Origin: a virus
Reading direction: 5' to 3' (one strand)
Virus record (IMG/VR): IMGVR_UViG_3300006735_005646
Span: 1-60,578 of that record
DNA: 60,578 bases
Under the pieces are notes generated by a model. That model did no database searches. It had not been told where the DNA came from and saw only the letters and a list, made by a program, of their open reading frames with translations. Positions within the stretch are counted from its first letter, which is position 1. Each line of letters begins with the position of its first letter. Positions 2,115 through 17,557 of the stretch are shown one piece after another. Both the position numbers and the translations under genes were made by a program.

Positions 2115-2145
2115 GTTTCATAGAAAGCCATTATTGGAGAATGAT

Positions 2146-3501
2146 ATGAAAACATTTAGAACATTGCTTAACGAAATAATGTCTGTGAATAATTCTGGAT
2201 CAGCAGATGCGGGTACAGATTCCGGTGGTATTGCAAACATAATTAGTTCAGATGGTAAAGGTAGTGATGGTAAAGGAAATGTCATCCCATCGAAACCTAA
2301 TGCTTCTCCGCCTACTGGAAAAATACGAAAAGCAGGTATAGGTTGGGGACTCGACGCAGAACAGTATAGTAATCTTGTTGCACAAGCAAAGGCTTCTGGA
2401 ATCGAGTTTGATGAATCAGATCCTAGCAACATAATGAGAGCAATAAATCAGAAAAAACTTAAAGACTTAGTGCAATCCTCAAAGGAACTGGCTAAGTCAT
2501 TCTCCACATCAATTGATTTTGAAGGAAGAGATGACAGGGGACTCGAAGATTTAGACAAAGCAAAGGCCGACTTTGCTAAACATGCAGAATCGGTTACAGA
2601 CAAAATTCATAAAACCAATTCTGAATTGATGACGAATAGGTGGTCTAAACCAGGCGACTTCAACAAAGATAATGCAGAAGATTATGTTGGATGGGACATC
2701 AAAGATACTGGTGAAGCACAACAGAGAAGTAATCCTTCTGGTGGTCCCGATGAACCTGATGATCCCAATGACGAAGAGCAGGATGAAAACGAAGAGCAGG
2801 ATGAAAACGAAGAGCAGGATGACAATGATGTAGATCCTGATAATGACTTCACTCCTCAACAAAATCAACAGTATCGTCGATGGAGACAGGATCAACTAAA
2901 TCCGAATCAACGACCAGATAAATATGCTCCTAGATTCCCTAACGATCCTACAGAGGGTAATCCTGTTGAAACACATCCACTGGATCCCGGCTACACCATT
3001 CCTCAAAATGCTAAACCCGTTAAACCGAATTATTATCACCGTGACAGAGTTGATCCGAGTCAATTCGTTCCGTGGGATGATCTCAACAATGATCCAAATC
3101 ATCAGCAGCCGGGATATGAAATGCCTAAGCCTAAACCACCGGGATATCAAATAGCACCGCACTGGTGGAGTCCCCTACACGGTAAACCAAAGCCGATAGA
3201 TCCGAATGATCCCGATTTACCCTTCCCAGGCTTACCGTATGTGAACCCGAAGCCGGCGCCCCACAAACCAATCGGGCCCCCGCACAGGCCTTGGTGGGAT
3301 TACATCAGACAGTTCTTTAATCCGTACAACGGACCCGGCGAAGCAACTCCGGGGTTTAGTTCTCCATCCGGGCCCACATGGCCAAACTACAATCAACTTC
3401 CCAACAGGCCGAGGATGCCGTTTTACTTTGGAAAAAATGAAGGAACAATAGTGAAAAAGACTATGAAATCATTCATGGAGTACATTTCAGAAACATCATG
3501 A
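2146..3501 (+). CDS. putative internal head protein, acidic repeat and Pro-rich
   Basis: ATG at 2146 is chosen because TTGGAGA sits just upstream; an in-frame TTG at 2134 overlaps that site. The protein (451 aa) begins MKTFRTLLNEIMSV, close to the capsid-targeting sequence of T4 internal proteins, with the likely cut after LNE. Then comes a low-complexity region with three 6-residue acidic repeats (EEQDEN), followed by a long Pro/Asn/Trp-rich C-terminal part. The last residues, MKSFMEYISETS, are a second targeting-like sequence at the wrong end. The stop overlaps the ATG of the next gene. A virion location is inferred; no enzyme motif is visible. Confidence 0.65.
   Translation: MKTFRTLLNEIMSVNNSGSADAGTDSGGIANIISSDGKGSDGKGNVIPSKPNASPPTGKIRKAGIGWGLDAEQYSNLVAQAKASGIEFDESDPSNIMRAINQKKLKDLVQSSKELAKSFSTSIDFEGRDDRGLEDLDKAKADFAKHAESVTDKIHKTNSELMTNRWSKPGDFNKDNAEDYVGWDIKDTGEAQQRSNPSGGPDEPDDPNDEEQDENEEQDENEEQDDNDVDPDNDFTPQQNQQYRRWRQDQLNPNQRPDKYAPRFPNDPTEGNPVETHPLDPGYTIPQNAKPVKPNYYHRDRVDPSQFVPWDDLNNDPNHQQPGYEMPKPKPPGYQIAPHWWSPLHGKPKPIDPNDPDLPFPGLPYVNPKPAPHKPIGPPHRPWWDYIRQFFNPYNGPGEATPGFSSPSGPTWPNYNQLPNRPRMPFYFGKNEGTIVKKTMKSFMEYISETS
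2773..2826 (+). repeat. 18-bp tandem repeat, three units
   Basis: Units at 2773-2790, 2791-2808 and 2809-2826; the first two are identical (gaagagcaggatgaaaac) and the third differs at two bases. They encode the acidic EEQDEN repeats. The near identity at DNA level suggests recent slippage or recombination. Confidence 0.9.
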
Positions 3502-4700
3502 AAGGGTTCTTGGAGTTCATCTCGGAAGCAGCGAAGAATGTCCACATGACACATGTTGAGGACTTGGTGTTTGAGGGCAGTAAAAGAGCAGAGGAAGCAG
3601 TTTCATTTTTGGAAGAGATTGCAAAGATGCTCGATGGTAACAGCAAGTCCAGAACAAATGCAACAGTCAAGTGGGACGGTGCGCCTGCAATTGTATGTGG
3701 TATCAATCCAGAGAATGGTAAGTTCTTTGTTGGTTCAAAGAGTGTATTCAACAAGACACCGAAGATTAACTACACCATTTCTGACATACGAAAGAATCAT
3801 AAAGGTGGAGTCGCAGATAAACTGGCAGTAGCATTGAAGTACCTGAAGAAACTTCCCATCAAAGGAATACTCCAAGGTGACATGATGTTTGGACCGGGTG
3901 ATATAAAAACGAAGAACATCAATGGTGAATCACACTACACCTTCGCACCAAATACAATTACATATGCACTACCCGTTGACTCTGATGCCGGTAAAAAAGT
4001 TAACCGGGCGAAGATGGGAATTGTGTTTCACACAACATACACTGGTAGCAGCATGTCTAAACTGTCTGCATCGTTTGGTGCAAACGTAAAGAATCTAAAA
4101 AGAAATAGTTCCGTTTGGGTTGATGATGCAGATTTCAAAGACGTAAGTGGAACAGCAACACTAACAAAGACAGAATCAAGTTCACTCTCCTCCGTACTAT
4201 CTACAGCAAAGGGTCAATTAAAATCAGCAAAATCGTTTTTAGATGAAATTGCAATGAACAAGAAAGTAATTGACAATGTAAATATTTACGCCAACTCTAA
4301 AGTAAGACAAGGTTCAACAACTCTTTCTACCAAGGAATTCATAACATTCATGAATGACAAAATACAGAAAGAAATTGACGGTCTTAAATCTGAAGAGGCA
4401 AAGAAGAGAAGAGAATCAACAAGGGATCAGATGGTAACATATCTAAATACCAAAAATAAAGAACTGGATTCTGTCTTCTCTTTACATGCCTCACTTACAG
4501 AAGCAAAGATAATTCTTGTAAGGAAATTAGAGTCGGTGAAGTCAATTGGAACATTCATTCAAACCTCGGATGGTTTCAAGGTGACTGCACCAGAGGGGTT
4601 CGTTGGTATTGATAAGTATACTAGTAATGCAGTGAAACTTGTTGACCGTTTAGAATTTAGTAAAGCCAACTTCACTGTACCAAAAAACTGGTCTAAGTGA
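3498..4700 (+). CDS. KxDG-motif nucleotidyltransferase-like protein with capsid-targeting start
   Basis: 400 aa, starting in an ATGA overlap. Residues 1-10 (MKGFLEFISE) resemble a capsid-targeting sequence with a cut site after ISE. Residues 58-61 read K-W-D-G in NATVKWDGAPAI, the motif I pattern of ATP-dependent DNA/RNA ligases and capping enzymes. It is followed by FFVGSKSVFNK (motif Ia-like), ILQGDMMFG (motif III-like, with GD for GE) and GIVFHTTY (motif IV-like). The family is known to me as a conserved uncharacterised protein of T4-like marine phages. A covalent nucleotidyltransferase or ligase is inference. The helical C-terminal half (240-380) is Lys/Ser-rich. Confidence 0.65.
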   Translation: MKGFLEFISEAAKNVHMTHVEDLVFEGSKRAEEAVSFLEEIAKMLDGNSKSRTNATVKWDGAPAIVCGINPENGKFFVGSKSVFNKTPKINYTISDIRKNHKGGVADKLAVALKYLKKLPIKGILQGDMMFGPGDIKTKNINGESHYTFAPNTITYALPVDSDAGKKVNRAKMGIVFHTTYTGSSMSKLSASFGANVKNLKRNSSVWVDDADFKDVSGTATLTKTESSSLSSVLSTAKGQLKSAKSFLDEIAMNKKVIDNVNIYANSKVRQGSTTLSTKEFITFMNDKIQKEIDGLKSEEAKKRRESTRDQMVTYLNTKNKELDSVFSLHASLTEAKIILVRKLESVKSIGTFIQTSDGFKVTAPEGFVGIDKYTSNAVKLVDRLEFSKANFTVPKNWSK

Positions 4701-4725
4701 AAGTTGACTGTTGAAGGAGAAAGAT

Positions 4726-5073
4726 ATGAACAAAGACTTAGTAAACAGAAGAAACAGTAAAACATGGGTTAAAATGAACGATAACAGCAAGTCCCATGTA
4801 TGGAGAGGTAAATTTGTTGAAGAACATGGTGGAGAATTTGTAAAAAAAGGTAGGTTCTGGGAGTGGCAAACTATACATAGTAGTGAATCCCAAGAGGTGA
4901 TTGAAAAGACGCCGATGTATGAGTTTAAGGATAATGAAGGTAAAACGCATTTAGTTGATAATCTAATGAAGTTTTGCCGGGAAAACGACTTAAACAAATC
5001 AGCCATCTATAAAGTGATGGGAGGCGAAAGGAAGCACCACAAAGGATTTACTTGCAGGAAGGTTTATAAATAA
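4726..5073 (+). CDS. small DNA-binding protein with NUMOD/IENR-like repeat
   Basis: 115 aa from ATG 4726, which has AAGGAGA just upstream; an in-frame TTG at 4711 is less likely. The C-terminal half carries NLMKFCRENDLNKSAIYKV followed by a GxRKHHKGFT ending. That pattern (FCxxNxL, then a short helix, then HKGF/W) is typical of the NUMOD/IENR DNA-binding modules found beside homing endonucleases. No nuclease motif is present here, so it may be a residue of a homing element or a free-standing regulator. The C-terminal gene end contains a late promoter for the next small gene. Confidence 0.6.
   Translation: MNKDLVNRRNSKTWVKMNDNSKSHVWRGKFVEEHGGEFVKKGRFWEWQTIHSSESQEVIEKTPMYEFKDNEGKTHLVDNLMKFCRENDLNKSAIYKVMGGERKHHKGFTCRKVYK
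5065..5072 (+). promoter_or_regulatory. T4-type late promoter
   Basis: TATAAATA embedded in the last codons of the NUMOD-like gene, 18 bases before the ATG of a 40-aa membrane protein, with AGGAGA between them. Confidence 0.7.
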
Positions 5074-5090
5074 TCATTTAGGAGAAACTC

Positions 5091-5213
5091 ATGGAATTTT
5101 TACACTCAGCACTCGGAACAGTATTTTACACAATCGTTGTATTTGTCGCTGGCGCCTTGATAGGAACGCCTCTGTGGACCTGGGTAAAAACAAAATTACC
5201 GTGGAGTAAATGA
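5091..5213 (+). CDS. 40-aa single-span membrane protein
   Basis: ATG at 5091 follows TTAGGAGAAACTC, a good ribosome binding site, and its own late promoter. The product has one hydrophobic segment (VFYTIVVFVAGALIG) and a short basic, Trp-rich tail (PLWTWVKTKLPWSK). Two hairpins follow directly, the second with a T-run, so this looks like a monocistronic late transcript. Function is unknown; a role in lysis timing or membrane modification is possible. Confidence 0.65.
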   Translation: MEFLHSALGTVFYTIVVFVAGALIGTPLWTWVKTKLPWSK

Positions 5214-5220
5214 TAAAATA

Positions 5221-5296
5221 AACCCCACCGACTTTCAGTTTTTGAGAGGAGGTGGTCCAGATATAACTGAACCTACGGATGAAAGTCGGTGGGGTT
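5221..5296 (+). repeat. 16-bp perfect inverted repeat with 44-base loop
   Basis: Arm aaccccaccgactttc at 5221-5236 is the exact complement of gaaagtcggtggggtt at 5281-5296. A shorter inner pair (tcagtt at 5235-5240 with aactga at 5265-5270) overlaps the base of the arm, so two folds compete. The element lies in the 3' region of the 40-aa gene, before a conventional terminator. Confidence 0.8.
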
Positions 5297-5303
5297 AAAA
5301 TAC

Positions 5304-5346
5304 AAAACTGGGGAGTGTACTTGTATGTATACTCTCCAGTTTTTTT
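5304..5346 (+). terminator. Rho-independent terminator
   Basis: Stem aactggggagtgtac with gtatactctccagtt (two G-U pairs), a 6-base loop and a run of seven T. It ends the transcript of the 40-aa protein, and isolates the large polyprotein gene that starts 33 bases later. Confidence 0.85.
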
Positions 5347-5378
5347 ATACATATAGGGATGCATTTAGGAGTCTTTAA

Positions 5379-8300
5379 ATGAAAAAAATTGTTTTTACAT
5401 TCGGTAGATTCAACCCACCTACTACTGGTCATTACCTACTTGCCACTCGCGTGAAAGAAGAGGCGAGAAAAAGGAATGCTGAATATAGGATTTACGGTAG
5501 CAACACCAAAGATCCAAAGAGAAATCCCCTCTCACCAACAAGCAAATCAAAATTCATGAAGAAGGTTCTGAACGATAGAAACGTCGTGGTGAACAAGGAC
5601 TCTGGTAATCCATATGCAGTGCTTCAGAAATTGAGTGCAGAAGGATATAGTGATGTCACTATGGTAGTGGGTTCCGATAGAGTTCCTGAATTCAAAAGAG
5701 GAATCAAGAAGTATATTGGCAAAAAGGGATACGAGAACATCAAAAATTTTGAAGTGGTATCTGCTGGTGATAGAGATCCAGATGCAGAAGGTGTTGAAGG
5801 TATGTCTGCATCTAAGATGAGAGCAGCGGCAGCAGAGGGAAATATAGATGCGTTTCGGTTGGGAGTCCCATCTCATGTGTCAAGTAAAGATGTGATGGAT
5901 TTGTTTTATGCAGTCCGAAGAGGTATGGGTATCCGAGGAAAGATTGAAGAGTCGTGGTTCAACTATGACGAGTTTGCAGAGTTTGTCAATGAACAATCAG
6001 AGTTGAACGAATTAACACTTCAGGCAAGAAGAAAACTTTCTATGCGTATGAAGAAGACTGCAAAGAAACGTGCTAGGGTTAGAAAACTTCGAGAGAAGAG
6101 AAGAAAAACAAAAGTACAATTGGTTGCAAGAGCAAACAAGCAAGCGATTAAGAAAATTCGCTCAAGGTTTCATAAGGGTAGATCATGGTCTGAAGTTTCA
6201 TTCATGGAAAGAGAAAGAATCAGCGAAAAACTAAAAAAGAAGAAGAAAGCAATTCAAAGAATTTCAAAACGACTCATTCCTGCAATGAACAAAGCAGAGA
6301 AGGAAAGACTAGATAAGGTTAGAAAACGAATGACTAGTAAAGATCCTGTAAAAGCAATCGCACCGACTAACGAACACATCGACATCATGTTTGAAGAATA
6401 CTTGGAGGAGATAGCAGTTCCGAGAGCGAGACCTAGAGACAAAGTTTCTAGTAGAGTTGCGGCACAGGATAAGGTAAATAGAGAAAAGCAAAAAGCACAG
6501 GACAGAGGACTGGATGCTAAGAAGGTAGATGCAGCAAGAAAAAGAGGTGAACGAGCAGACGGTAAAACTGATAATCGTTCTGACAAACAGAAAAAGTTTC
6601 CCAACCTACAACCAACCGATCCTGTAGAAATACAAAGAGGAGATGAGGTTGAGATTGTTCTATTCAAAGATGCCAAAATAGATCAAATCAAATCTTCAAA
6701 ACCAGTAAAACCAGGTCAAGCAAAATCAATTTCAAATAAGCCAGGATTTGTTTGTGGTGAAACAGCACAATCATTGGGTGTCAATTGTGACAAGGTTGCA
6801 CAGGCGCAACAGACAGAAAAAGGACAACAGGGACAGCAAGCACCAGAACAGGAAGTAAATCCAGAACTACAAAAGGCGTCCGATGCACAACAAATTGCTC
6901 AGTCAAAACTTAGCACTGCTCAAGCAAATCAACAACTTGCTGACATGGAAGCACAGCAGCAACAACAAAAAGATGCAAGAGAAGCAGAGTTAGCACAAGC
7001 ATACAAAAACCCATATGCGAAACAATTCGGAATTGAAAGCAAACCCCTACCCAAAGGGAAGAAAGATAAACAAAAGGGAGACACATTCCCCTCTTCTGGA
7101 CACAAGGCGGTAGATGCAGAGTTCGCTCTAGTCGCTGCTGCACATGGTTGTCACGATTTGACTGGTAAAAAAATGAAAGCATGTTTAGATGCTGCGGACA
7201 TAAGTGCAGGAGATCAAAAAATATTAGCACAGAGTGTGACACTAACAGGTGCTGGTAGAAGAATGTGGGATACTCTGGGTAAACTTATACCAGAAAACTT
7301 TGAAGCAAAACACTATGGTAAGGGTGGACCTCCTATCACTTTGTCTGACACTTGGCAAAGAAATAAAGCAGGAGATAAAACACCAAAGACTGATTTGTAT
7401 TGGGAAGATAAAAAGACCGGAGAGTCAATAAGAGCATCAATGAAAATTGGTGATGGACAACTCATGTCTGGTGGTGCAGAAGAATCCATGGCAACACTCG
7501 AAACTGCGATGAACCGTATGCGTGGTTGCAAGGGAGTCGATAAAGACGGACAAGGAACTGATTGCAAACGAACTCCAATGTCAGGTGAAGCGAAAGCAAT
7601 AAAAGCGATTCAATCAATCAAAGAGGACATTGCTAAATCATACGACAGAGATAGTCTTGGTGCGGGTATGGGTCCAACGTCATGGTGGTTGGACGGTGGT
7701 GTCGTAAAAACACCAGGCGATAGAGAACCAGATTGGTGGAAGAAGGACGGATCACCAGGCTCCAAGGGTGTCAAGTGGAAAGATGTAGTTGGTAAACCAC
7801 CAAACAAAGCAGACTTTCCAAACTACAATGAAAAGACAATCGATAGATTGAAGAATGCAAACTCTTCTCATAAGAGGATCATGGGTAATATTGAAAATCT
7901 ATTCGAGGAGAGTGAAGAGTTCAAGAGACATGTAATTTACGAATCATTAACTGGTTGTGGTAAATTCTGTGGTTGTTGTGGTCAGGATGTGTGTAATGAT
8001 TGTCAAGAGAAAGCAATGGCGACTCACATGGTTACTGCTGAGAAAGATGGAACAAAGGCAGCACTCACAGAAATCGGTGGACCGAATAGTCCGTTCGTAA
8101 CTAAACTACTGAAGCAAGTGAACGTATCCGTGCGTCTCAAGAGCAGTCAAAAAATATCCAAAGCAACCGGGAAAGAAGGAAACTATAGTTGGTGGTCTGT
8201 TCTTGGACTCACCACAAGTGGCGGATTCATGGGTGAAGAAAATGTACAGGCATTTCTTGAGTTCAATGGTGATACAGAACATCCAAAAAACCAAGTGAAA

Positions 8301-10010
8301 AAAGCAATGGAGTCTATTGGGGATGATCCACAAAAACTCCTAGAGTTCTTCGGTGCTGAAATTGAAATGGATGTAACACACGGAAATCTAGCAGACACAT
8401 TCGCAGAGAATACATCTGGTAAGCACACTGAGATTGTAATCAACGGAAAGACAACAAGAATTCCAATCGAAAATCCAGAGGATTATAGAGATTACCAGAA
8501 GGAAGCAGAAGAAGGCGAAGACCTAGACGAATCATTCCGTGTGCTGACTGAACCAGACATTCTTGACAGACTGGTAACACAGTTGAGAGATAAAGGAATG
8601 GAAAAAAATAAAGCATACGCAGTCGCCACTTCACAGTTGCAAAAACGTGGTGTTCTTAAAAAGGGAACGAACGACTTGACTACACATGGAGAAAAGAGAG
8701 ACTCGATGGGTGCCGCAGGTAGAGCAAAGGATAGAGCAGCGAAGAAGGATGGTAAGTCTCCGAAGGATTATAACTATAATCCAAGAACAAACATTGCAAC
8801 ACAGAAAGAAGATTGTGGTTGCATAAATGAAGACAACACCGCCGCAATTGCAAAGCAAGTTAAGCAAGCAGTAAAGAAGTATGTGACTGGTACTCCCAGA
8901 GTTCAATCCAAGGGTGGTAAGGTTCGTTTCATTATGCTACGAGCAGACAAAATTGACAACAAACTTCGCAAGATGATTCTTGATGTTGAACATCCAAACG
9001 CAAAGGTTCGTGATAAGAATAATATCTCTTATGGAAACATCAGCGATAGAATTATCAGTGCGGGTGCAGATGTATGGATGGATGCACTTGGGTTGAAAGA
9101 ATCCGTTCAATTGAATGAATGTTGGGACACACATGTTCAACAAGGATATAAAATGAAAGGTGGGAAGAGAGTTCCAAACTGCGTACCAAAAGGTTCTGCA
9201 ACTAAATTTGGAGAGTCAACCACACATGGTATTGGAACATTTGCAAAAATAGACATTCAAGAGGGAGCAACCATAAGTCTATATCTCTTGGACTTGATGG
9301 AAAATACACCCACATACCAACGAACAGACTTCTGTAGATTTACAAATCACTCACACAAAAATGCCAATATAACTCTCGAACGAGTTGATGGTGGTCTTCA
9401 TGCTACAGCAACCAGAGATATTCAGGAAGGAGAGGAGTTCTTCATAGACTACTTCCATGTTCTTGACAATATCGGGACTAACATGAGCATCATTGAAGAT
9501 GTTCTAAGATGGACAGAAGGATATGAAAACCTATACATTCCAGAGGATACAATCCAGTCCTTCGCACATGAATTATCATACTTTGTAAGTATAGGTGATT
9601 GCCCTGAACTGTCCGAGGAGTTCTTGAAAATTCTTCCTGAGTACACAGTATCGGAAGATGAAGATCCGGTGAAGAGAGCAAAAAGGCAAAAAGAATATAA
9701 CGCAAGACCAGAACAAAGAGCAAGAAGAAGTTCAAGAACAAATGAGAGAAACAAGAGAATAAGAAAAGGACAGGTGAAGGTCGGTGACGGGAAGGATATA
9801 GATCACAAGGACGGTAATCCACTAAACAACTCCTCTTCCAATATAAGCATAACATCTGCGAATTACAACAGAGGACGAAATAATAACAAGGGCAGAACCA
9901 ACGAAGAACATGGTGCCGGTGATATGGGAACAAAGGAATTGCTAAAAAAATATCTAAAAAATACACCCCATATGACTATTGATGCTAAGTTCAAGAAAGA
10001 GATGGATTGA
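5379..10010 (+). CDS. giant virion polyprotein: nucleotidylyltransferase, nuclease-like, Cys cluster, SET and HNH domains
   Basis: 1543 aa; AGGAG precedes the ATG. Domains in order: 1-185, HIGH-superfamily nucleotidylyltransferase (TFGRFNPPTTGH at 7-18, SASKMR at 143-148), most like NMN adenylyltransferases; 205-335, strongly basic; 475-555, Gln-rich helix; about 665-700, PKTDLYW then SMKIGDGQLMSGG, a nuclease-like core; 860-875, six Cys in GCGKFCGCCGQDVCNDC; about 890-1010, a domain shared with other marine T4-like virion proteins; 1248-1275, Cys/Trp-rich WDTHVQQGYKMKGG; 1284-1358, SET domain (GIGTFAK, NHS at 1323-1325, GEEFFIDY); 1473-1500, HNH-type (DIDHKDGNPLNN). Sites like gp21 cuts separate these blocks: LNE211, LEE344, IYE855, INE1151, LNE1247. 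A packaged, protease-matured enzyme set is inferred. Confidence 0.8.
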   Translation: MKKIVFTFGRFNPPTTGHYLLATRVKEEARKRNAEYRIYGSNTKDPKRNPLSPTSKSKFMKKVLNDRNVVVNKDSGNPYAVLQKLSAEGYSDVTMVVGSDRVPEFKRGIKKYIGKKGYENIKNFEVVSAGDRDPDAEGVEGMSASKMRAAAAEGNIDAFRLGVPSHVSSKDVMDLFYAVRRGMGIRGKIEESWFNYDEFAEFVNEQSELNELTLQARRKLSMRMKKTAKKRARVRKLREKRRKTKVQLVARANKQAIKKIRSRFHKGRSWSEVSFMERERISEKLKKKKKAIQRISKRLIPAMNKAEKERLDKVRKRMTSKDPVKAIAPTNEHIDIMFEEYLEEIAVPRARPRDKVSSRVAAQDKVNREKQKAQDRGLDAKKVDAARKRGERADGKTDNRSDKQKKFPNLQPTDPVEIQRGDEVEIVLFKDAKIDQIKSSKPVKPGQAKSISNKPGFVCGETAQSLGVNCDKVAQAQQTEKGQQGQQAPEQEVNPELQKASDAQQIAQSKLSTAQANQQLADMEAQQQQQKDAREAELAQAYKNPYAKQFGIESKPLPKGKKDKQKGDTFPSSGHKAVDAEFALVAAAHGCHDLTGKKMKACLDAADISAGDQKILAQSVTLTGAGRRMWDTLGKLIPENFEAKHYGKGGPPITLSDTWQRNKAGDKTPKTDLYWEDKKTGESIRASMKIGDGQLMSGGAEESMATLETAMNRMRGCKGVDKDGQGTDCKRTPMSGEAKAIKAIQSIKEDIAKSYDRDSLGAGMGPTSWWLDGGVVKTPGDREPDWWKKDGSPGSKGVKWKDVVGKPPNKADFPNYNEKTIDRLKNANSSHKRIMGNIENLFEESEEFKRHVIYESLTGCGKFCGCCGQDVCNDCQEKAMATHMVTAEKDGTKAALTEIGGPNSPFVTKLLKQVNVSVRLKSSQKISKATGKEGNYSWWSVLGLTTSGGFMGEENVQAFLEFNGDTEHPKNQVKKAMESIGDDPQKLLEFFGAEIEMDVTHGNLADTFAENTSGKHTEIVINGKTTRIPIENPEDYRDYQKEAEEGEDLDESFRVLTEPDILDRLVTQLRDKGMEKNKAYAVATSQLQKRGVLKKGTNDLTTHGEKRDSMGAAGRAKDRAAKKDGKSPKDYNYNPRTNIATQKEDCGCINEDNTAAIAKQVKQAVKKYVTGTPRVQSKGGKVRFIMLRADKIDNKLRKMILDVEHPNAKVRDKNNISYGNISDRIISAGADVWMDALGLKESVQLNECWDTHVQQGYKMKGGKRVPNCVPKGSATKFGESTTHGIGTFAKIDIQEGATISLYLLDLMENTPTYQRTDFCRFTNHSHKNANITLERVDGGLHATATRDIQEGEEFFIDYFHVLDNIGTNMSIIEDVLRWTEGYENLYIPEDTIQSFAHELSYFVSIGDCPELSEEFLKILPEYTVSEDEDPVKRAKRQKEYNARPEQRARRSSRTNERNKRIRKGQVKVGDGKDIDHKDGNPLNNSSSNISITSANYNRGRNNNKGRTNEEHGAGDMGTKELLKKYLKNTPHMTIDAKFKKEMD

Positions 10011-10660: not shown

Positions 10661-10663
10661 ATA
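10656..10663 (+). promoter_or_regulatory. T4-like late promoter, NATAAATA variant
   Basis: AATAAATA, 32 bases before the ATG at 10696, with TGGAG between them. Confidence 0.55.
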
Positions 10664-10695
10664 GTAGGGTAAACCACAATCTACTGGAGATAAAC

Positions 10696-11166
10696 ATGAA
10701 AAGTTATAAAGAATTACAAGAAAATCTAAAACCAATCACCGAAGGACAAGAAACTTCCGGTGGTGCTGCTAGAAGCGCCCACAGTGATTTCGGTGTTCAT
10801 AGAATCGAACACCCAGAGCAATTAGGAAGACTCAATGCATTCTTAAATGCGTTTACTCAAATGGAGTTCATGGAACCAAAGGCAGCGATTGCGACGATTC
10901 GTCACAAACTCAATCTAGCAGGACTTGATTTTGAATGGAACAACACATCAACATACACACCAGAGGAAAACTTAAAACTTCCACTCAATAGGTATGGTGG
11001 TTCTTTCGGAACAACTCCCACACATGATCTAAGACAAGGGTTCTATAAAGGTGATAATATCTCCGAGTTCAATGGTGGAGTTGGTATGGCTTTATCTATA
11101 GATGTATATCAGGAGGATAGTGGATTGTATCAAATGGATGCAAAAATTATTCCAAACGCTGAATAG
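10696..11166 (+). CDS. conserved T4-like phage protein with capsid-targeting start
   Basis: 156 aa; ACTGGAG precedes the ATG and a late promoter lies upstream. Residues 1-9 (MKSYKELQE) resemble a capsid-targeting sequence. The body contains DFGVHRIEHPEQLGRLNAF, RHKLNLAGLDFEW and FGTTPTHDLRQGFYKGD. I know this combination as a conserved but uncharacterised protein of marine T4-like phages. It is probably a virion or prohead component; no enzyme motif is visible. Confidence 0.6.
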   Translation: MKSYKELQENLKPITEGQETSGGAARSAHSDFGVHRIEHPEQLGRLNAFLNAFTQMEFMEPKAAIATIRHKLNLAGLDFEWNNTSTYTPEENLKLPLNRYGGSFGTTPTHDLRQGFYKGDNISEFNGGVGMALSIDVYQEDSGLYQMDAKIIPNAE

Positions 11167-11186
11167 TCAATCTTCTTTTTTTTATT

Positions 11187-12019: not shown

Positions 12020-12021
12020 AA

Positions 12022-12402
12022 ATGGCAAACAATAGAGAGATACCAGAAGAATTTCTAAACGGAGACTTTGATTTTGGTTTTACTGCGGCAGATGAGGATG
12101 AACTCAACGCACTTGTAGAACTAGATGATCCCACAACACCAGACGAAATCAAAGAGATGCAGGACAAGTTAGATTTGATTCTGCAAATGAACTCCACATG
12201 TGATGGTGCAAACCAAGTAAAAGAACAATACGATGAACTTCTCAAAGCAAAATTGGAAGAGATCGAAAAGGCCACTCTTCCTCTTCTGTTGAACCTCAAA
12301 AAGAACAAACAGAAAGATTATTTGTATTGGCCGGGAGGTCAAAGAGAAACACAATGTGAACTACAGATACAGAAGATACTCAATGTAACGAGGAATGTCT
12401 GA
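12022..12402 (+). CDS. conserved acidic coiled-coil phage protein
   Basis: 126 aa; AAGGAG lies within the end of the previous gene. The N-terminal part is acidic with DFDFGFTAADEDELNAL, the middle is a predicted coiled coil (about 35-90), and the C-terminus has DYLYWPGGQRETQCELQIQK. The DFGFT and YWPxR-type motifs occur together in marine T4-like phages. Function unknown. The stop overlaps the ATG of the small basic gene that follows. Confidence 0.55.
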   Translation: MANNREIPEEFLNGDFDFGFTAADEDELNALVELDDPTTPDEIKEMQDKLDLILQMNSTCDGANQVKEQYDELLKAKLEEIEKATLPLLLNLKKNKQKDYLYWPGGQRETQCELQIQKILNVTRNV

Positions 12403-12632
12403 TGGGATGTGGGTGTAACAAAAGAAGAAAGAAAAGAAGGCAGTCTTCAAGGATGCCTGTTTCACCAAATCAAAAGCAAGCAACAACTATCGGTGGTATC
12501 AAACTTCCTACCAATCCGTCTTTTGATGAAAGACGAAGTGCTGTTGCAAAAATAAACAACGGAAAGATAAACAAAGCAAGAAAACAAACCGTTGCTGATC
12601 GTGTGAAAGCAAGAAAAGAATCGGAAGGATAA
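12402..12632 (+). CDS. small basic protein with N-terminal Cys pair
   Basis: 76 aa, ATG overlapping the preceding TGA. It starts MGCGCNKRRKKRRQSSR and stays highly basic throughout, which suggests binding to nucleic acid or to acidic cargo. The two cysteines at 3 and 5 could bind metal or be modified. I recognise no family. It sits between a conserved structural-type gene and the lysozyme and is probably late. Confidence 0.45.
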   Translation: MGCGCNKRRKKRRQSSRMPVSPNQKQATTIGGIKLPTNPSFDERRSAVAKINNGKINKARKQTVADRVKARKESEG

Positions 12633-12633
12633 G

Positions 12634-13428
12634 ATGGCAAAAACTCCTGCTTATCTTAGAGGTCCAAACGCAGTTGATGTAGAGACAAACCCGAAACCAT
12701 CAACAACTCCAGATCCAGATAATTATCCTCGTATCAACACATGCTGTCCTTGCATGGAATGTTTGGATGACTGTATCAAAGAAAGAGAGAGTGGTGGGGA
12801 AGGTTCTCCTGTTACCAATCCCTCCAACCTTAAACCAGATCCAGATCATACAGGATGTGATGCACCGGCCACTGGATGTGAAACAGGTCTTGGTTGTGAT
12901 TGTGGTCCTTATCAAATAGATCATCAAGACTATGTTCACGATATATGCGGTCCTGTAGGACCATGTTCAAACGGTGATGGTGGTTATGATAATAGTTGTT
13001 GTGAAGTCTGTGCGGATGGATACGGAGAATCATTATGTCAACCATGCGGAAACGATGCGGCGTGTTGTGAAGAGAAAGAAAGAAGAAGTAAAAAATTAAT
13101 GGATTGTTGGAGGAGAAGATACACAAGAAATCCTGCCTGCAAGGGACATGGTCCGATTATACACCCAACCGATCCAGACTCTGGACCTTGTTTTACTTGT
13201 GAAGACATAGCAAGAATGCACAATGGTGGTCCGAAGGGACATTGTAATAAAAACACAGAGGGTTATTGGAATAAAATCAAAGCATGTATGGCAAGGAAGT
13301 GTGGGTTTGCTTCAACAGAATCTGGCGAAGCGTGTGCAGATGTTGAAGTAAATAAGAGCAAACGTACAGAAACAAACCAAACTCGTTATTACGAAAGGTG
13401 GAAGATCATGAATCCAAAAGATCCATGA
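12634..13428 (+). CDS. invertebrate-type (destabilase) lysozyme
   Basis: 264 aa; GGAAGG precedes the ATG. The sequence carries the signature of i-type lysozymes. The CPCMECLDDCIKERESGG stretch (38-55) has E52 in the place of the catalytic Glu. CGPYQI follows at 90-95, then a Cys-rich stretch ending CWRRRYT (158-164), and finally CEDIARMHNGGPKG (189-202) with EGYWNKIKACM (209-219). Family members hydrolyse peptidoglycan and are animal secreted enzymes or bacterial homologues. At least 20 cysteines suggest several disulphides, odd for a cytoplasmically made phage endolysin. No signal peptide is visible. Holin and spanin candidates follow within 900 bases, so an endolysin role is the simplest reading; a virion-bound lysin is the alternative. 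Confidence 0.8.
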   Translation: MAKTPAYLRGPNAVDVETNPKPSTTPDPDNYPRINTCCPCMECLDDCIKERESGGEGSPVTNPSNLKPDPDHTGCDAPATGCETGLGCDCGPYQIDHQDYVHDICGPVGPCSNGDGGYDNSCCEVCADGYGESLCQPCGNDAACCEEKERRSKKLMDCWRRRYTRNPACKGHGPIIHPTDPDSGPCFTCEDIARMHNGGPKGHCNKNTEGYWNKIKACMARKCGFASTESGEACADVEVNKSKRTETNQTRYYERWKIMNPKDP

Positions 13429-13430
13429 TG

Positions 13431-13438
13431 TATAAATA
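13431..13438 (+). promoter_or_regulatory. T4-type late promoter almost touching the start codon
   Basis: TATAAATA ends 5 bases before the ATG at 13444. A usual late start would fall on or next to the ATG, giving a leaderless transcript. No ribosome binding site lies between. Confidence 0.65.
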
Positions 13439-13443
13439 CTACT

Positions 13444-13839
13444 ATGAAGACCTTTAAACAATTATTACAGAATTTGCCAGAAGATGTTGCCAACTCAATG
13501 GGTGGTGGTGGTTTCGGTGTAGGACAGGCAGCACAGACTTCAAACCCCAACCTTGCGGGATATGATCCTGTTATGGGACTGGGTGGAAGAAAAAAGAAAA
13601 AGAAAAAAGTACAAGAGAAATTTGCAGGTTGTGCCGTGTTCAATTTAACCAGCGAAGAATACAATAAATGTATGCGTGGTAGAATGAAATACGAAAGATG
13701 GAGTAAGAAAATGAATATGGAAGATATCAACAACCAAGATATCCGAACATATTGTCATCGAAATCCAGGTCAGCCTGTTGTTATTAAAGATTCAACCACG
13801 GGAATAATGGCATACCTTATTCCACCATCAAAAAGGTAA
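13444..13839 (+). CDS. conserved phage protein with capsid-targeting-like start
   Basis: 131 aa. It opens MKTFKQLLQNLPEDVANSM, like the T4 capsid-targeting sequence, then a Gly-rich segment, a KKKKKK run (52-57) and a conserved C-terminal domain with CAVFNLTSEEYNKCMRGR and HRNPGQPVVIKDSTTGIMAYL. That domain is widespread in T4-like marine phages with no known function. The Lys run next to a flexible N-terminus is consistent with a head protein touching DNA. It interrupts the lysozyme-holin order. Confidence 0.6.
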   Translation: MKTFKQLLQNLPEDVANSMGGGGFGVGQAAQTSNPNLAGYDPVMGLGGRKKKKKKVQEKFAGCAVFNLTSEEYNKCMRGRMKYERWSKKMNMEDINNQDIRTYCHRNPGQPVVIKDSTTGIMAYLIPPSKR

Positions 13840-13842
13840 AAT

Positions 13843-14289
13843 ATGCTTACATCATTTTTAACACCAGAGTTTCTTACTCTGATTGGTAGCAGTTTAACAG
13901 GATTTCTGTTTAGATACCTAGCAGAGAAGAGAAAAGATCAGAAAGAAATGTTCGAGAGAGCAATGGCACGATCCAAGAGACAGGACGAAAGTGCTGATCT
14001 CGCTGTTAAACGAGTAAGTGTTGACGCTGGTAAAATCATCAGAAGAATTATTGTTGTTACTATATTGTTCGGTACAATACTTGCACCATTCATTCTACCA
14101 TTCTTTAGCATTCCTACGGTGGTAGAGGTTACAGAGAAGAGTGGTTCATTCCTTGGTATCTTTGGTGGTAATACTAGCATCAAATTCCAAGAGGTATATG
14201 GTTATCTGTTCACCGAAGAGAACAGACAGATTCTTTTAACCATTGTAGGATTCTACTTTGGTAATGCTGCTGGAAAGGCTTCGACATGA
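13843..14289 (+). CDS. three-helix membrane protein, holin candidate
   Basis: 148 aa with hydrophobic segments at about 7-24 (weak), 66-87 (IIVVTILFGTILAPFILPFF) and 127-142 (ILLTIVGFYFGNAAGK), and a basic, charged loop (26-50). The FYFGNAAGKA ending is one I associate with three-helix phage holins. Position between the lysozyme and a spanin-like lipoprotein supports a lysis function. An alternative is a general membrane protein. Its stop overlaps the next ATG. Confidence 0.55.
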   Translation: MLTSFLTPEFLTLIGSSLTGFLFRYLAEKRKDQKEMFERAMARSKRQDESADLAVKRVSVDAGKIIRRIIVVTILFGTILAPFILPFFSIPTVVEVTEKSGSFLGIFGGNTSIKFQEVYGYLFTEENRQILLTIVGFYFGNAAGKAST

Positions 14290-14501
14290 ATAAATTAGTT
14301 TTGCTTATGATTTTGTTTTTAACTGGGTGCAGTGATGCGATGCGAATAAAATCAACAACACCAGTGGGAAAAATTCCGCAACAAACGGCAGAACAAACAA
14401 CAGAATCCTTATCTCATAATGGTATGTGGATTACTGTGTGGTTGATTTGTGTTCTTGTTGCTACTGTTCTTGTGTTCAGGACATTCAAAAAAGAATCTTA
14501 G
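14286..14501 (+). CDS. short lipoprotein with C-terminal membrane helix, u-spanin candidate
   Basis: 71 aa, ATGA overlap with the holin candidate. A signal peptide ends in the lipobox LTGC (Cys 15); a polar segment of about 30 residues follows; residues 48-66 (WITVWLICVLVATVLVF) form a transmembrane helix. A lipid at the N-terminus and a C-terminal inner-membrane helix is the topology of unimolecular spanins such as T1 gp11. The periplasmic part is much shorter than in T1, so bridging of the envelope would need a narrow periplasm or oligomer contact. Its TAG overlaps the stop codon of the convergent gene. Confidence 0.55.
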   Translation: MNKLVLLMILFLTGCSDAMRIKSTTPVGKIPQQTAEQTTESLSHNGMWITVWLICVLVATVLVFRTFKKES

Positions 14502-15067
14502 AATGTGTATGAGTCAAGTACTTTATCATGCAGGTACTTGCAAATATAATAAGAATCAACAATATCGGAAACAGGGTTATCCACTGTTCCTTTGTCTGGA
14601 GTTATTTCTTGCTTCAGATCGATACCAGTATCAGTTTTAAAGAATTTATGCATCATAGTTTTGTCTGCATTACCTTTACCAGTTGCAAACTTCTTCACTG
14701 TTGTTGGAGGAATAACTTCGAGTGGAACGCCGCTATTGTATATCTTATACTTAAGAACACCAGTGTTCTCTGCGATATGAAAAACTTTACCCTTTGAACC
14801 ATAAGAGTATCCTTCTATTGCGATGTGTTCACATCCTAGAAGGTTATCCATCGCCCAGTCTGCAATGCTTTTATATCTCTGGTATTCACAGTTCCAATCT
14901 TGAAATCTGGAACCATATACATTGGTTAAAAAGAATTCTGCATACTTCTTTGTTTCGGTTAGAAAATAAAACTTACATCTTTCAAATGTAAACGCTTCCT
15001 TTTCTGTCCCCGCAAATACACATATACTTGGACTTCTCATACTGTAGTCTATTCCTGCAATAATCAT
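14498..15067 (-). CDS. RuvC-like Holliday junction resolvase
   Basis: 189 aa, GTAGGAG before the ATG. An RNase H fold is indicated by D7 in AGIDYSMRSP, E85 in HIAIEGYSYG, and the acidic pair D168/D171 in VSDIVDSYYI, with PPTTVKKFATGKGNADK in between as in RuvC proteins. Such enzymes cut four-way DNA junctions; in T4 this job belongs to the unrelated endonuclease VII (gp49). It probably resolves branched DNA before packaging. A late promoter variant overlaps the upstream small frame. No signal of truncation. Confidence 0.75.
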   Translation of the reverse strand: MIIAGIDYSMRSPSICVFAGTEKEAFTFERCKFYFLTETKKYAEFFLTNVYGSRFQDWNCEYQRYKSIADWAMDNLLGCEHIAIEGYSYGSKGKVFHIAENTGVLKYKIYNSGVPLEVIPPTTVKKFATGKGNADKTMMHKFFKTDTGIDLKQEITPDKGTVDNPVSDIVDSYYICKYLHDKVLDSYTF

Positions 15068-15082
15068 TAGAATCTCCTACAA

Positions 15083-15166
15083 CTATTTATCTCCAGTTTC
15101 TTCTATTCGATATGATAGAATGATTAGCGATATTAAAAGTGCTAGTTCTATCAAGTCTAAATTCAA
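15083..15166 (-). CDS. 27-aa hydrophobic peptide (tentative)
   Basis: TTG start with AAGGAAA upstream, product with one hydrophobic helix (IELALLISLIILSY) between acidic ends. It begins 3 bases after the previous small membrane gene. Supported only by position and hydrophobicity. Confidence 0.3.
   Translation of the reverse strand: MNLDLIELALLISLIILSYRIEETGDK
15084..15091 (-). promoter_or_regulatory. T4-like late promoter, NATAAATA variant
   Basis: GATAAATA on the minus strand, 17 bases before the RuvC-like start. Confidence 0.55.
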
Positions 15167-15168
15167 AA

Positions 15169-15297
15169 CTAATTTCCTTGTATAAATTTTACCAATAGTA
15201 TTCCCGCGACGAATGATGCTATCGCTACAATCGCTCCACTTGGAGTTGAAAGTTGATGCACCTTACTATCTATCCATTGTTTCCAGTAATTGTTCAT
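15169..15297 (-). CDS. 42-aa single-span membrane protein
   Basis: ATG at 15297 with GAGGAAA 6 bases upstream, inside the end of the serine protease gene. The product has a polar N-terminus (MNNYWKQWIDSKVHQL) and one hydrophobic helix (GAIVAIASFVAGILLVKF). Overlap with the protease gene suggests translational coupling. Function unknown; a small envelope partner of the protease is one possibility. Confidence 0.5.
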   Translation of the reverse strand: MNNYWKQWIDSKVHQLSTPSGAIVAIASFVAGILLVKFIQGN

Positions 15298-16024
15298 TTT
15301 TTATTTCCTCTATCCAACTTTTATAATATTCAACACTTGCACAAGCGTTCTCAAATATTAGTCCACCAGTCACACTGAAGTTTGCCATGATACCTATGAG
15401 TTTGTTTTCTCTGGTTAGGACTGCACCACCAGAGTCACCGAACCAGATAGATGCCTTTAGTGGGAGCATGACCATGAACTGCGGGTTTGAGATGAGTCTA
15501 CCGTAGTACCAAAAGGTGCCAGAGTTACTGTATCTCTTAATACCATGGCCATGCCCCACTGTAGTAAGAGGCATTCTCTTATAAACTGAGTCGTCAGGTT
15601 CGAGTAATTCTACGGGAGACTCATCTGATGGATGTTCCAAAACTATGATCGCTATATCGTGAAATCCGTAAACGCCGGGAATATGTTCTGTGTAATAAAT
15701 CACCTCCTTGATACAGATTTTATCACCGTCCGTTTCTGTCCAAACCAAATCTTCCTTCCCTTCTGTAACATGTGCAGCAGTAAGAACCAATGTTGGTTCA
15801 ATTAAAACACCAGTACCAATGAGTTTGTTGTTTTCTGAATAGTTAATTGAACCAACAAACTGATATGGATCAGGCCACAAATCTCTGAGGAGATATGTGA
15901 ACGGACCCGGTGGTTTCGGGGTTTCTTTTATTTCTATTTTTTGTGGCGGAGGAGTTATGGTAGTTGCTGTGCAACTTGTTAAACATAGTAAGGACGCTAA
16001 AACATATAAAATTGTCTTTCTCAT
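15266..16024 (-). CDS. lipoprotein trypsin-like serine protease
   Basis: 252 aa. The N-terminus is a lipoprotein signal peptide ending LTSC (Cys 18), followed by a Pro-rich linker (25-41). The chymotrypsin-fold triad is complete: H85 in LTAAHV, D123 in FHDIAIIVL and S198 in FGDSGGAV. The mature enzyme should sit on the periplasmic face of a membrane. Phage-coded exported proteases of this class are unusual; possible roles are degrading host receptor, blocking superinfection, or weakening the envelope at lysis. It is separated from the upstream polyprotein gene by a terminator, so it should have its own promoter, which I could not define. High confidence in fold, low in role. Confidence 0.85.
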   Translation of the reverse strand: MRKTILYVLASLLCLTSCTATTITPPPQKIEIKETPKPPGPFTYLLRDLWPDPYQFVGSINYSENNKLIGTGVLIEPTLVLTAAHVTEGKEDLVWTETDGDKICIKEVIYYTEHIPGVYGFHDIAIIVLEHPSDESPVELLEPDDSVYKRMPLTTVGHGHGIKRYSNSGTFWYYGRLISNPQFMVMLPLKASIWFGDSGGAVLTRENKLIGIMANFSVTGGLIFENACASVEYYKSWIEEIKNEQLLETMDR

Positions 16025-16062
16025 TCCATATATTATGTATAAGAGAAATGGCTAATAATAAG

Positions 16063-16083
16063 AAAAAACCTCTTAGAAAGAGG
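16063..16083 (-). terminator. Rho-independent terminator, possibly bidirectional
   Basis: Six-base stem cctctt (16069-16074) with aagagg (16078-16083), three-base loop, A-run on one side and T-run on the other. On the minus strand it follows the 470-aa polyprotein gene. Confidence 0.75.
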
Positions 16084-16144
16084 CTTTTTCCCGTGTGACT
16101 AATTATCTTTTTATTACGTTAACTTTCTCTATGTGTATATCACA

Positions 16145-17557
16145 CTACTTTTTCGAGGATCTAACATCTGGTTTACCAGGCATGTCTTGTCTATTAGTTA
16201 CAGTTTTTTTACCACCAGGTCCAACGGCAGTAATTTCATGTCCAATTTTAGTTGCGGGATTTAGTTTTATCTTTACTGCTTCTTTGATTGCATTCTTTTT
16301 ATTTGATTTGAAACCATTTGTTCCGAAAACATTGTTATTGATTGCAGGGATACCAACTCCTGCACCTTTCATGTTGTATTTTTGTAATTCTTTTGGGCAT
16401 TGGTAGTCTTCGCCTAATCTTTCCTTCGCTTTCATAAGACCTTTTGCTCGTCTGTTTGTGCTTGGTTTGTGCTTACCTTGATCTGTGTAAAGGTCTCTTG
16501 TTATTTGAGTTCTTGCTTTAGTTGCATAACTTCGGAGAGTTTTTTTATCTAATTCGTTAAGTGAACCTTCACCCAACTTTAGTTTTATGTTTGCTTTTTT
16601 CTGTTGTAATTGGCGAACTCTGTTTAGTTTTTGGGTTGCTTGTCTCTCAGTTTTTCCACGGCTTATAACTTTATCACCCTTGCTGACATCATACTTATCG
16701 AATCCGTGTCTGTCTTGCTTACCTGTATTTTGTGCCTTATACTTTCCATACACCATACTGCTTGCTTCACCAAGTTTCTTGACTGCCCTTTGAATTCCAC
16801 TTTGTCTCTTTTTTGTTATTCGTTCTGTTTTGCGGTAATCTCGTATTGCGGTGTTCTTTGCTCTTGCCGCGAGTTGCCTGACATTTCTTCTAGTTGGATT
16901 AGGTGCAGCGGCATTCATTGTATCATCAGCATCTTTAAATCTTTGTCCGGCGCGTCCTGATTCGTACCCCGATCTTTTAATGCTACCAGCAGCCTTATTG
17001 ATATAACTTCCGAGTGTGGACTTCTTCAACTCATCTAGATTCTCACCTTCTTCTGGCTCATGGTCTTCATGCACCTCACTTACAAGAATTTTAAGACTAT
17101 CGGTGGGAACTCCCTTTTCAACACCATGTTCAAACATGACATCGTACCAAGCAATTTGTCCATTCTCATCTGGCGTTGCATGTTTAGAATGAATGCATTG
17201 TCCTTCGCCATATTGTGTGTGTTCTACATGAGTGGCACAATCATGCTTTCCTTTTTTCTTTTTCTTCTCTTCAAGTTCAACAGATTCCTTCACAATGTCT
17301 TCAGCCTCATTCTCACCGGGTTGTTTCTTATTCTTGGTATCGCCTGAGATTTCCATGTCTCTAGCAGGTATATTCTTCGTAGTACCATCTTCAAATTTAA
17401 CCCTGTAGAACTCGTCACCTTCCGTCTCACCGTCTTGAGACACTTCTTTTCCAACTACCCCTCTCTTACCATTCACGATTACAGTTTTACCCTTCATGTG
17501 GTCTTCATTGAGGTTAATGATAGATTCTAACAGGTTTTGAAATTGCTTAGTTTCCAT
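16145..17557 (-). CDS. putative processed virion polyprotein with SH3-like and basic modules
   Basis: 470 aa; TAGGAG precedes the ATG. The start METKQFQNLLE resembles a capsid-targeting sequence. Many [LIV]xE sites follow: LLE11, LNE18, LEE97, LDE176, LGE264, LGE330, LNE335, LGE383, IKE426. Residues 23-70 and 112-157 look like two small SH3/Tudor-like barrels (YRVKFEDGTTKNIPARDMEI and a similar WYDVMFEHGVEKGVPTDSL). Two basic helical modules begin almost identically (LDELKKSTLGSY at 174 and LNELDKKTLRSY at 333), and each ends in LGE. Maturation by the prohead protease into discrete DNA-binding peptides is inferred. It is isolated on the strand opposite the other cargo genes. Confidence 0.65.
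   Translation of the reverse strand: METKQFQNLLESIINLNEDHMKGKTVIVNGKRGVVGKEVSQDGETEGDEFYRVKFEDGTTKNIPARDMEISGDTKNKKQPGENEAEDIVKESVELEEKKKKKGKHDCATHVEHTQYGEGQCIHSKHATPDENGQIAWYDVMFEHGVEKGVPTDSLKILVSEVHEDHEPEEGENLDELKKSTLGSYINKAAGSIKRSGYESGRAGQRFKDADDTMNAAAPNPTRRNVRQLAARAKNTAIRDYRKTERITKKRQSGIQRAVKKLGEASSMVYGKYKAQNTGKQDRHGFDKYDVSKGDKVISRGKTERQATQKLNRVRQLQQKKANIKLKLGEGSLNELDKKTLRSYATKARTQITRDLYTDQGKHKPSTNRRAKGLMKAKERLGEDYQCPKELQKYNMKGAGVGIPAINNNVFGTNGFKSNKKNAIKEAVKIKLNPATKIGHEITAVGPGGKKTVTNRQDMPGKPDVRSSKK

What the first reader, a model, noticed from the sequence alone, without database searches (positions are those of the whole stretch)
2146..17557. A shared N-terminal capsid-targeting code marks at least six cargo proteins
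Seen: MKTFRTLLNE (2146), MKGFLEFISE (3498), MKSYKELQE (10696), MKTFKQLLQ (13444), METKQFQNLLE (16145, opposite strand), and MYNQHQLDE (456). Known: T4 internal proteins carry a similar 10-residue start that directs them into the prohead and is cut by gp21. Inference: these genes form one packaging set with varied cargo, including a ligase-like enzyme.
Basis: partly seen in the sequence, partly recalled or inferred. Interest (0 to 1): 0.82.

Follow-up and report, generated by a model that had tools for sequence, protein, structure and literature searches.

The report
Capsid-loading tags on marine phage proteins
Unrelated proteins of this T4-like virus of bacteria share a short front-end tag like the one T4 uses to load proteins into its head, and in related viruses tagged enzymes turn up in the particles, so the tag probably marks proteins that are packed into the virus and injected into the host.

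Summary
Two more (10696, 13444) have its targeting end with an [LIMV]-x-E site nearby. Two (16145, 456) fail. The tag itself is real. Over 2,826 ORFs from 160 related viral loci plus the window, it follows 214 of 4,220 start-proximal ATGs against 23 of 14,041 internal ATGs, on about 23 unrelated families.

Independent test: in cyanophage S-CREM2 all three of 219 proteins with the tag (SAM hydrolase, kinase, NMNAT) are among 52 published virion proteins. Over three phages it is 5 of 7 tagged against 85 of 502 untagged; three of the five are one family, and in S-SZBM1 two of three were not detected. DUF6267 homologues without the tag were not in virion lists (2 of 2).

The 3498 product (DUF6267) is ligase-like. 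The 13444 product follows its site with a copy of the mature capsid-protein arm. Best reading: a T4-type CTS loading varied enzymes into proheads. Packing of the window's own proteins is untested.

The parts
2146..2175 (+). Leader MKTFRTLLNE of ORF 2146-3501 (451-aa Pro/Asn/Asp-rich orphan)
   Evidence: Strict pattern match; body has no match in 50,697 phage records nor in the fetched loci
3463..3498 (+). Second leader-like copy MKSFMEYISETS at the very C-terminus of ORF 2146-3501; imperfect out-of-frame tandem copy of the next gene's leader
   Evidence: DNA read; strict core FMEYISE at residue 447 of the ORF as called. C-terminal copies are not enriched in general
3498..3527 (+). Leader MKGFLEFISE of the DUF6267 protein (3498-4700)
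   Evidence: Strict match; 92 of 122 family members carry a strict leader; first 20 residues pLDDT 56-57 against about 92 in residues 21-40
3498..4700 (+). DUF6267 protein, ligase-like nucleotidyltransferase
   Evidence: PF19782 E 1.6e-119; invariant K58-W-D-G and E366-G367 in 26 of 26; all 50 listed VIA-align rows are ligase-type enzymes, best Z 9.1
5379..10010 (+). 1543-aa multidomain protein: NMNAT/cytidylyltransferase domain, internal leader-like motifs at residues 199-205 and 338-344, SET domain, weak HNH match; no N-terminal leader
   Evidence: its NMNAT domain matches virion proteins of three phages
5973..5993 (+). Internal leader-like motif FAEFVNE just after the NMNAT domain
   Evidence: Residue 199; 6 of 34 NMNAT proteins have a strict motif in this 20-residue bin
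6390..6410 (+). Internal leader-like motif FEEYLEE
   Evidence: Residues 338-344; same place (338-350) in 6 of 8 close orthologues, window included
10696..10743 (+). Variant leader MKSYKELQENLKPITE: targeting residues Y4/L7, L/I-x-E site displaced to 14-16
   Evidence: [IL]xE at 14-16 in 8 of 8 close orthologues, window included; canonical MKSFAKYISE in distant members
13444..13482 (+). Variant leader MKTFKQLLQNLPE: F4/L7/L8, candidate cleavage at LPE (residues 11-13)
   Evidence: M1, K2, F4 invariant in 9 of 9; 6 of 10 orthologues strict; LPE aligns with the LTE of S-CREM2 gp23
13483..13575 (+). Segment resembling the N-terminal arm of mature major capsid protein gp23
   Evidence: Best local alignment to S-CREM2 gp23 reached by 1 of 300 shuffles, to S-SZBM1 gp23 by 0 of 300; phrog_696 'major head protein' E 1.3e-5
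16145..17557 (-).
   Evidence: 0 of 84 family members strict; S-CREM2 gp129, a virion protein, is a weak homologue (E 0.0017)
456..1364 (+). MYNQHQLDE...
   Evidence: 0 of 2 family members strict; modular segments after V-x-E

Best explanation
The leader is a T4-type capsid-targeting sequence. An N-terminal decapeptide, typically M-K-x-F-x-x-[FYL]-[LI]-x-E, docks cargo on the prohead core; the gp21-type prohead protease then cuts after the E, the propeptide leaves, and the mature cargo stays in the head and is presumably injected with the DNA. Cargo bodies are unrelated and interchangeable: here the orphan 2146, the ligase-like DUF6267 protein (3498) and, with a displaced cleavage site, 10696 and 13444. 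Shown here: the shared leader, its geometry, its spread over unrelated families, its association with published virion detection in related phages, and the protease gene in relatives. Inferred: docking, cleavage, packaging and injection of the window's own proteins.
For: Enrichment at gene starts, about 31-fold, and recovery of the 4/7/10 geometry in an unforced scan. 25 protein clusters with at least one leader, two of them spurious, while 52 of 59 clusters with 8 or more members have none in 1,191 members. Pattern fixed, then tested on S-CREM2: 3 of 3 leader proteins are virion proteins (gp6 MKDFDSFLEE, gp14 MKRFDAFLTE, gp154 MKNFSSFLTE) against 49 of 216 others, P 0.013. A relaxed form, chosen after seeing the data, gives 5 of 7. 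Pooled with S-SZBM1 and a 50-kb stretch of S-SCSM1: 5 of 7 against 85 of 502, P 0.0024. Leaderless DUF6267 proteins of S-SZBM1 (gp141) and S-CREM2 (gp87) are not in the virion lists, while leader-bearing NMNATs are, 3 of 3. The S-CRM01 kinase, reported in virions (passage in PMC10665884), starts MISFDQFLSE. Peptidase_S77 (gp21) in 12 of 30 relatives' contigs, and in 11 of the 12 contigs of 79 kb or more. T4 rule: positions 4 and 7 target, 8 and 10 serve processing; cut after L/I-x-E (passages of PMC9026906).
Against: In S-SZBM1 two of three leader proteins (gp191, gp192) were not detected and the single-phage test is not significant (P 0.36); that list has 30 proteins. Three of the five leader-and-virion cases are one orthologous family (NMNAT), so they are not independent. 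The window's own NMNAT protein has no N-terminal leader. UvsX of HTVC008M matches the strict pattern, presumably by accident, so the pattern is not fully specific. Most virion proteins lack a leader, as expected for tail and shell proteins. HTVC008M has a strict match in only 2 of 196 CDS examined. The authors of PMC10665884 note that such enzymes could be co-purified contaminants (passage).
Confidence: 0.82

Rival explanations
1. The leaders are an ordinary N-terminal bias (Lys-rich amphipathic first helix) without packaging function.
For: Three generic or mixed charge/hydrophobic patterns rank above the 4/7/10 pattern in the unforced scan; UvsX matches by accident.
Against: 52 of 59 clusters with 8 or more members have no match in 1,191 members; the start M-K-x-[FY] and an [LIMV]xE are retained where bodies are 23-29% identical; leader proteins are over-represented in virions.
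Confidence: 0.07
2. The leader is a docking tag for another phage assembly (replication or membrane complex) and virion detection reflects abundant co-purified enzymes.
For: The cassette lies beside replication genes in the window; authors of PMC10665884 and PMC9602691 leave co-purification open (passages).
Against: Geometry equals the T4 leader including the prohead-protease L/I-x-E; leaderless DUF6267 in the same genomes as leader-bearing NMNAT is not in the virion lists; the 13444-type protein follows its site with a gp23-arm copy.
Confidence: 0.09
3. Leaders are short duplications spread by recombination at gene starts, kept without function in many genes.
For: Tandem 35-bp imperfect leader pair at 3463-3532, one copy out of frame.
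Against: Leader geometry is kept in distant homologues; the link to virion detection stays unexplained. Spread by recombination and function are compatible.
Confidence: 0.05

Closest known systems
T4 capsid-targeting sequence of internal proteins IPI, IPII, IPIII (removed by gp21)
   Same: About 10 N-terminal residues, K2, aromatic 4, aromatic/large 7, aliphatic 8, E10; shared by unrelated bodies; gp21-type protease in relatives
   Different: Cargo is enzymes or orphan proteins rather than small internal proteins; several have the L/I-x-E site displaced to 11-16, or leader-like motifs inside a large multidomain protein; host and phage group differ
Virion-associated enzymes of cyanophages S-CREM2, S-SCSM1, S-SZBM1, S-CRM01 (NMNAT, SAM hydrolase, APH-like kinase, Cas9-like protein)
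   Same: NMNAT domain of 5379-10010 is homologous to three of them; several of these enzymes carry the same leader
   Different: In the window the NMNAT is part of a 1543-aa protein without an N-terminal leader; DUF6267 here has a leader, in S-CREM2, S-SZBM1 and S-CRM01 it does not
Polyvalent proteins of phages and plasmids (PMC5512222, passages seen)
   Same: Large multidomain protein proposed to be packaged and cut
   Different: Described from other phage groups; no shared domain was tested here
RNA/DNA ligase superfamily (T4 Rnl2, Naegleria RNA ligase)
   Same: K-x-D-G and EG motifs, ligase-like predicted fold
   Different: No sequence-profile match to solved ligases; activity untested

Membership tests
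T4-type capsid-targeting sequence | Aromatic at 4 and aromatic/large hydrophobic at 7 (targeting) | tested here: met
   2146 (F4,L7), 3498 (F4,F7), 10696 (Y4,L7), 13444 (F4,L7); not met by 16145 or 456
T4-type capsid-targeting sequence | Aliphatic 8 and E10 (processing) | tested here: inconclusive
   Met for 2146 and 3498; displaced to 14-16 or 11-13 in 10696 and 13444; not met in register by 16145 and 456
T4-type capsid-targeting sequence | Same phage encodes a gp21-type prohead protease | tested here: inconclusive
   Window is a 60.6-kb fragment, no head genes seen; Peptidase_S77 in 12 of 30 relatives' contigs, 11 of 12 of 79 kb or more
T4-type capsid-targeting sequence | Leader-bearing proteins are in the virion | tested here: met
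   Related phages, published lists: 5 of 7 against 85 of 502; S-SZBM1 alone 1 of 3; the window's own proteins could not be tested
T4-type capsid-targeting sequence | Cut after the E, leader absent from mature protein | not testable with these tools
   Needs N-terminal peptides
T4-type capsid-targeting sequence | First ten residues suffice to package a foreign protein | not testable with these tools
   Needs a fusion experiment
Covalent nucleotidyltransferase (ligase) superfamily, for DUF6267 | Motif I K-x-D-G (motif recalled, from no call) | tested here: met
   K58 W59 D60 G61 invariant in 26 of 26
Covalent nucleotidyltransferase (ligase) superfamily, for DUF6267 | Ligase fold | tested here: inconclusive
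   50 of 50 listed VIA-align rows ligase-type, best Z 9.1, rmsd 3.9 over 189; Foldseek best E 0.58

The most novel reading that the evidence does not exclude
Marine T4-like phages run a general protein-delivery system: one short leader loads interchangeable enzymes (ligase-like DUF6267, NMNAT, SAM hydrolase, kinase, Cas9-like nuclease, orphans) into the head as a ready-made counter-defence and repair kit; large members such as the 1543-aa NMNAT-SET protein are polyproteins with internal leader-like sites cut by the prohead protease; and one cargo class (13444 type) is anchored by a copy of the mature capsid protein's N-terminal arm.
Probability: 0.3. Interest if true: 0.85.

Novelty: new variant of a known kind. 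Interest (0 to 1): 0.64.

Why it matters
Proteomic papers list enzymes in cyanophage particles and leave open whether they are real cargo or contaminants. A common T4-like leader on several of those enzymes gives a sequence rule that predicts cargo from genomes, and turns 'which enzymes do ocean phages inject?' into a testable question. It also extends the T4 targeting sequence, known mainly from small internal proteins, to varied enzymes across marine phages.

Tried and rejected
C-terminal leaders as a general feature: the C-terminal copy in ORF 2146-3501 looked striking, but in 1,976 distinct C-termini the docking pattern is no commoner than in control windows (37 against 38.7; with E 17 against 11.7). 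Rejected as a rule.

16145 and 456 as CTS cargo: rejected on family conservation (0 of 84, 0 of 2).

DUF6267 by sequence profile against solved structures gave only chance-level hits (best E 0.44); Foldseek alone gave no match at E 0.001; only motifs and VIA-align point to ligases.

My profile searches for homologues of 2146, 10696, 13444 and several others in three annotated cyanophage protein sets (all CDS of S-CREM2 and S-SZBM1, 13 proteins of S-SCSM1) found none; the 13444 link came from pairwise alignment of its arm segment, where orthologues L004 and L007 do not align significantly to any of the three gp23 and L006 only weakly.

A pattern search in the window's own record with a guessed leader DNA sequence found nothing. 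The 10696-family model is modest (pLDDT 72) and was not searched for folds. Papers: in five searches no listed paper was seen to describe this leader in cyanophages; PMC3037559 has no mention of internal proteins or prohead in its held main text. That is not proof of absence.

Full report
What was given. The window is a 60,578-base IMG/VR virus record, a fragment. Its right part has T4-type replication genes, by eye and by homology of two of them to the primase and RegA of S-SCSM1; no head genes were seen. The cassette of interest runs from about 24 to 17557. The best-ranked named relative for DUF6267 is Pelagibacter phage HTVC008M, followed by cyanophages.

Observation. The six N-termini exist. 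The T4 record gives MKTYQEFIAEA for IPII and IPIII and MKTFKEFTSTT for IPI. PMC9026906 (passages read) says that positions 4 and 7 of the leader carry targeting, 8 and 10 carry processing, and that gp21 cuts after L/I-x-E. By this rule 2146 (MKTFRTLLNE) and 3498 (MKGFLEFISE) are full matches, 10696 and 13444 have the targeting half, and 16145 and 456 have neither in register.

More than chance. The fetched set is 160 loci of IMG/VR: the best 80 of 277 for DUF6267 and the best 80 of 109 for the 16145 protein, which yield 2,826 non-overlapping ORFs with the window. A strict leader follows 214 of 4,220 ATGs in the first 30 codons and 23 of 14,041 later ATGs. The loci are partly redundant, so this ratio is descriptive. 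With the two bait families removed and one ORF per family, the triple aromatic-4, aromatic-7, acidic-10 ranks fourth of 1,031 patterns (11 of 469 against 2 of 2,267); the patterns above it are charge/hydrophobic biases, one of them with an aromatic at 4. Leaders sit on 25 ORF clusters, two of them spurious; 52 of 59 clusters with 8 or more members have none among 1,191 members. Bodies include DUF6267 (92 of 122 strict), NMNAT-type proteins (a chained cluster, 55 of 189), a HAD-like protein (my reading of its motif; 23 of 56), a RimK-type ATP-grasp protein, and an NMNAT fused to a zeta-toxin-like P-loop domain.

Conservation in the window's own families. In the 10696 family, M-K-x-[FY] and an [LIMV]xE within 20 residues are present in 16 of 16 distinct N-termini, with start codons chosen by a preference for that start; the eight close orthologues have [IL]xE at exactly 14-16 with a varying middle residue, and distant members (23% identical) start MKSFAKYISE. 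In the 13444 family M1, K2 and F4 are invariant in 9 of 9 and 6 of 10 members are strict. Among 1,634 distinct ATG N-termini only 94 start M-K-x-[FY]. The [LIMV]xE test alone is weak, because other families have it too.

Independent test with published virions. The pattern was fixed, before any virion list was read. S-CREM2 (PMC10665884, section with Table 3 read; genome OR473000): 3 of 219 CDS match, and all three are among the 52 detected proteins: SAM hydrolase, APH-like kinase, NMNAT (P 0.013). A relaxed pattern, chosen after seeing the data, adds gp13 and gp136 (detected) and two undetected ones. The Cas9-like virion protein gp12 has FASFMAE at residues 19-25; in the same-position genes of S-B68, S-N03, MA01 and S-CRM01 an [FL]xxF[LI]xEA also lies near residue 20. 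S-SZBM1 (PMC9146016, Table 1 read; OL473597): 3 of 218 match; NMNAT is detected, gp191 and gp192 are not (P 0.36). Its prose names a few more detected proteins than its table; I used the 30 of the table. S-SCSM1 (PMC9602691, passages; record notes): 1 of 72 CDS in a 50-kb stretch matches, the NMNAT, marked virion protein; that stretch was chosen to include the NMNAT gene. Pooled: 5 of 7 against 85 of 502 (P 0.0024), with three of the five being one family. The S-CRM01 kinase, cited as a virion protein in PMC10665884, starts MISFDQFLSE; in S-N03 and MA01 the kinase start is degenerate. DUF6267 homologues without leader (S-SZBM1 gp141, S-CREM2 gp87) are not in the lists. This natural contrast is small but points the same way.

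Protease. Peptidase_S77 (gp21) is found in 12 of 30 relatives' contigs searched, including 11 of the 12 of 79 kb or more; the other 18 of the 30 have none, and fragments prove no absence.

The cargo. The DUF6267 model (pLDDT 83.9) has a poorly predicted first 20 residues before a well-predicted domain. K58-W-D-G and E366-G367 are invariant in 26 of 26. All 50 listed VIA-align rows are RNA/DNA ligase-type enzymes, best Z 9.1 with rmsd 3.9 over 189 residues; Foldseek alone is not significant, nor is a profile search of solved chains. So 'ligase-like' is supported, activity unknown. The 1543-aa product of 5379-10010 has an NMNAT domain homologous to three virion NMNATs, a SET domain (E 2e-6) and a sub-threshold HNH match. 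It has no N-terminal leader. It has two internal leader-like motifs (8 in eight orthologues against 1.9 by shuffling), the second at the same place in 6 of 8; across 36 NMNAT proteins such motifs cluster in two 20-residue bins (6 of 34 and 5 of 30). In the P-loop fusions the segment before the P-loop domain reads [LIM]xE then G/N-V. I take this as a hint of polyprotein processing, no more.

A capsid-arm copy. The 13444 product after LPE resembles S-CREM2 gp23 after LTE, its presumed maturation site (1 of 300 shuffles as good); orthologues L002, L082, L008 and L010 also align to gp23 of S-CREM2 and S-SZBM1, L025 to S-SZBM1 and HTVC008M gp23, L006 only weakly (7-9 of 300 shuffles as good), and L004 and L007 do not. 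S-CREM2 gp160 and S-SCSM1 gp97, both virion proteins, carry a near-copy of the same arm. Upstream of it S-SCSM1 gp97 has in-frame ...LIRE behind an alternative start. This supports LPE as a real cleavage site and suggests binding to the shell; both are inference.

Verdict. A T4-type capsid-targeting leader with varied cargo is the best explanation (0.82). The count of six is reduced to two clear and two variant cases. It is a new variant of a known kind: T4's CTS, carried into marine phages and onto enzymes.

Noticed in passing
3463-3532: Two leader copies stand in tandem, 35 bases apart and out of frame: one ends the 2146 ORF, one starts DUF6267. Close relatives L001 and L002 lack the 2146 ORF between the exonuclease and DUF6267 genes, so it may have been inserted at the leader.
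   Followed up: partly
456-1364: Gly/Ala-rich protein with segments that begin after V-x-E (VQE|GIIGGALKGAALAG); in L002 the same segment stands at the N-terminus, as if modules were shuffled.
   Followed up: partly
5379-10010: One 1543-aa gene joins NMNAT, SET and weak HNH matches; relatives range from 1067 to 1849 aa as called.
   Followed up: partly
15266-16024 (-): Trypsin-like serine protease (PF13365 E 4.3e-14) with a lipoprotein-like signal start, next to the cassette.
   Followed up: no
17652-18830 (-): Protein with a signal-peptide-like start that looks like an outer-membrane porin by eye; HTVC008M also has an annotated porin. No PHROG match better than E 0.09.
   Followed up: no
35001-58047 (-): About 23 kb of genes that by eye look like sugar-nucleotide and glycosyltransferase genes; not searched.
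   Followed up: no
12634-13428: Cys-rich 264-aa protein without PHROG match, in the middle of the cassette.
   Followed up: no
L177:7704-10313 and L186-L189: Cas9-like virion protein of S-CREM2 and same-position genes begin with a conserved SRW-rich stretch before an internal leader near residue 20.
   Followed up: partly
L164:883-1902 (HTVC008M): UvsX start matches the strict leader, presumably by accident: a warning on specificity.
   Followed up: partly
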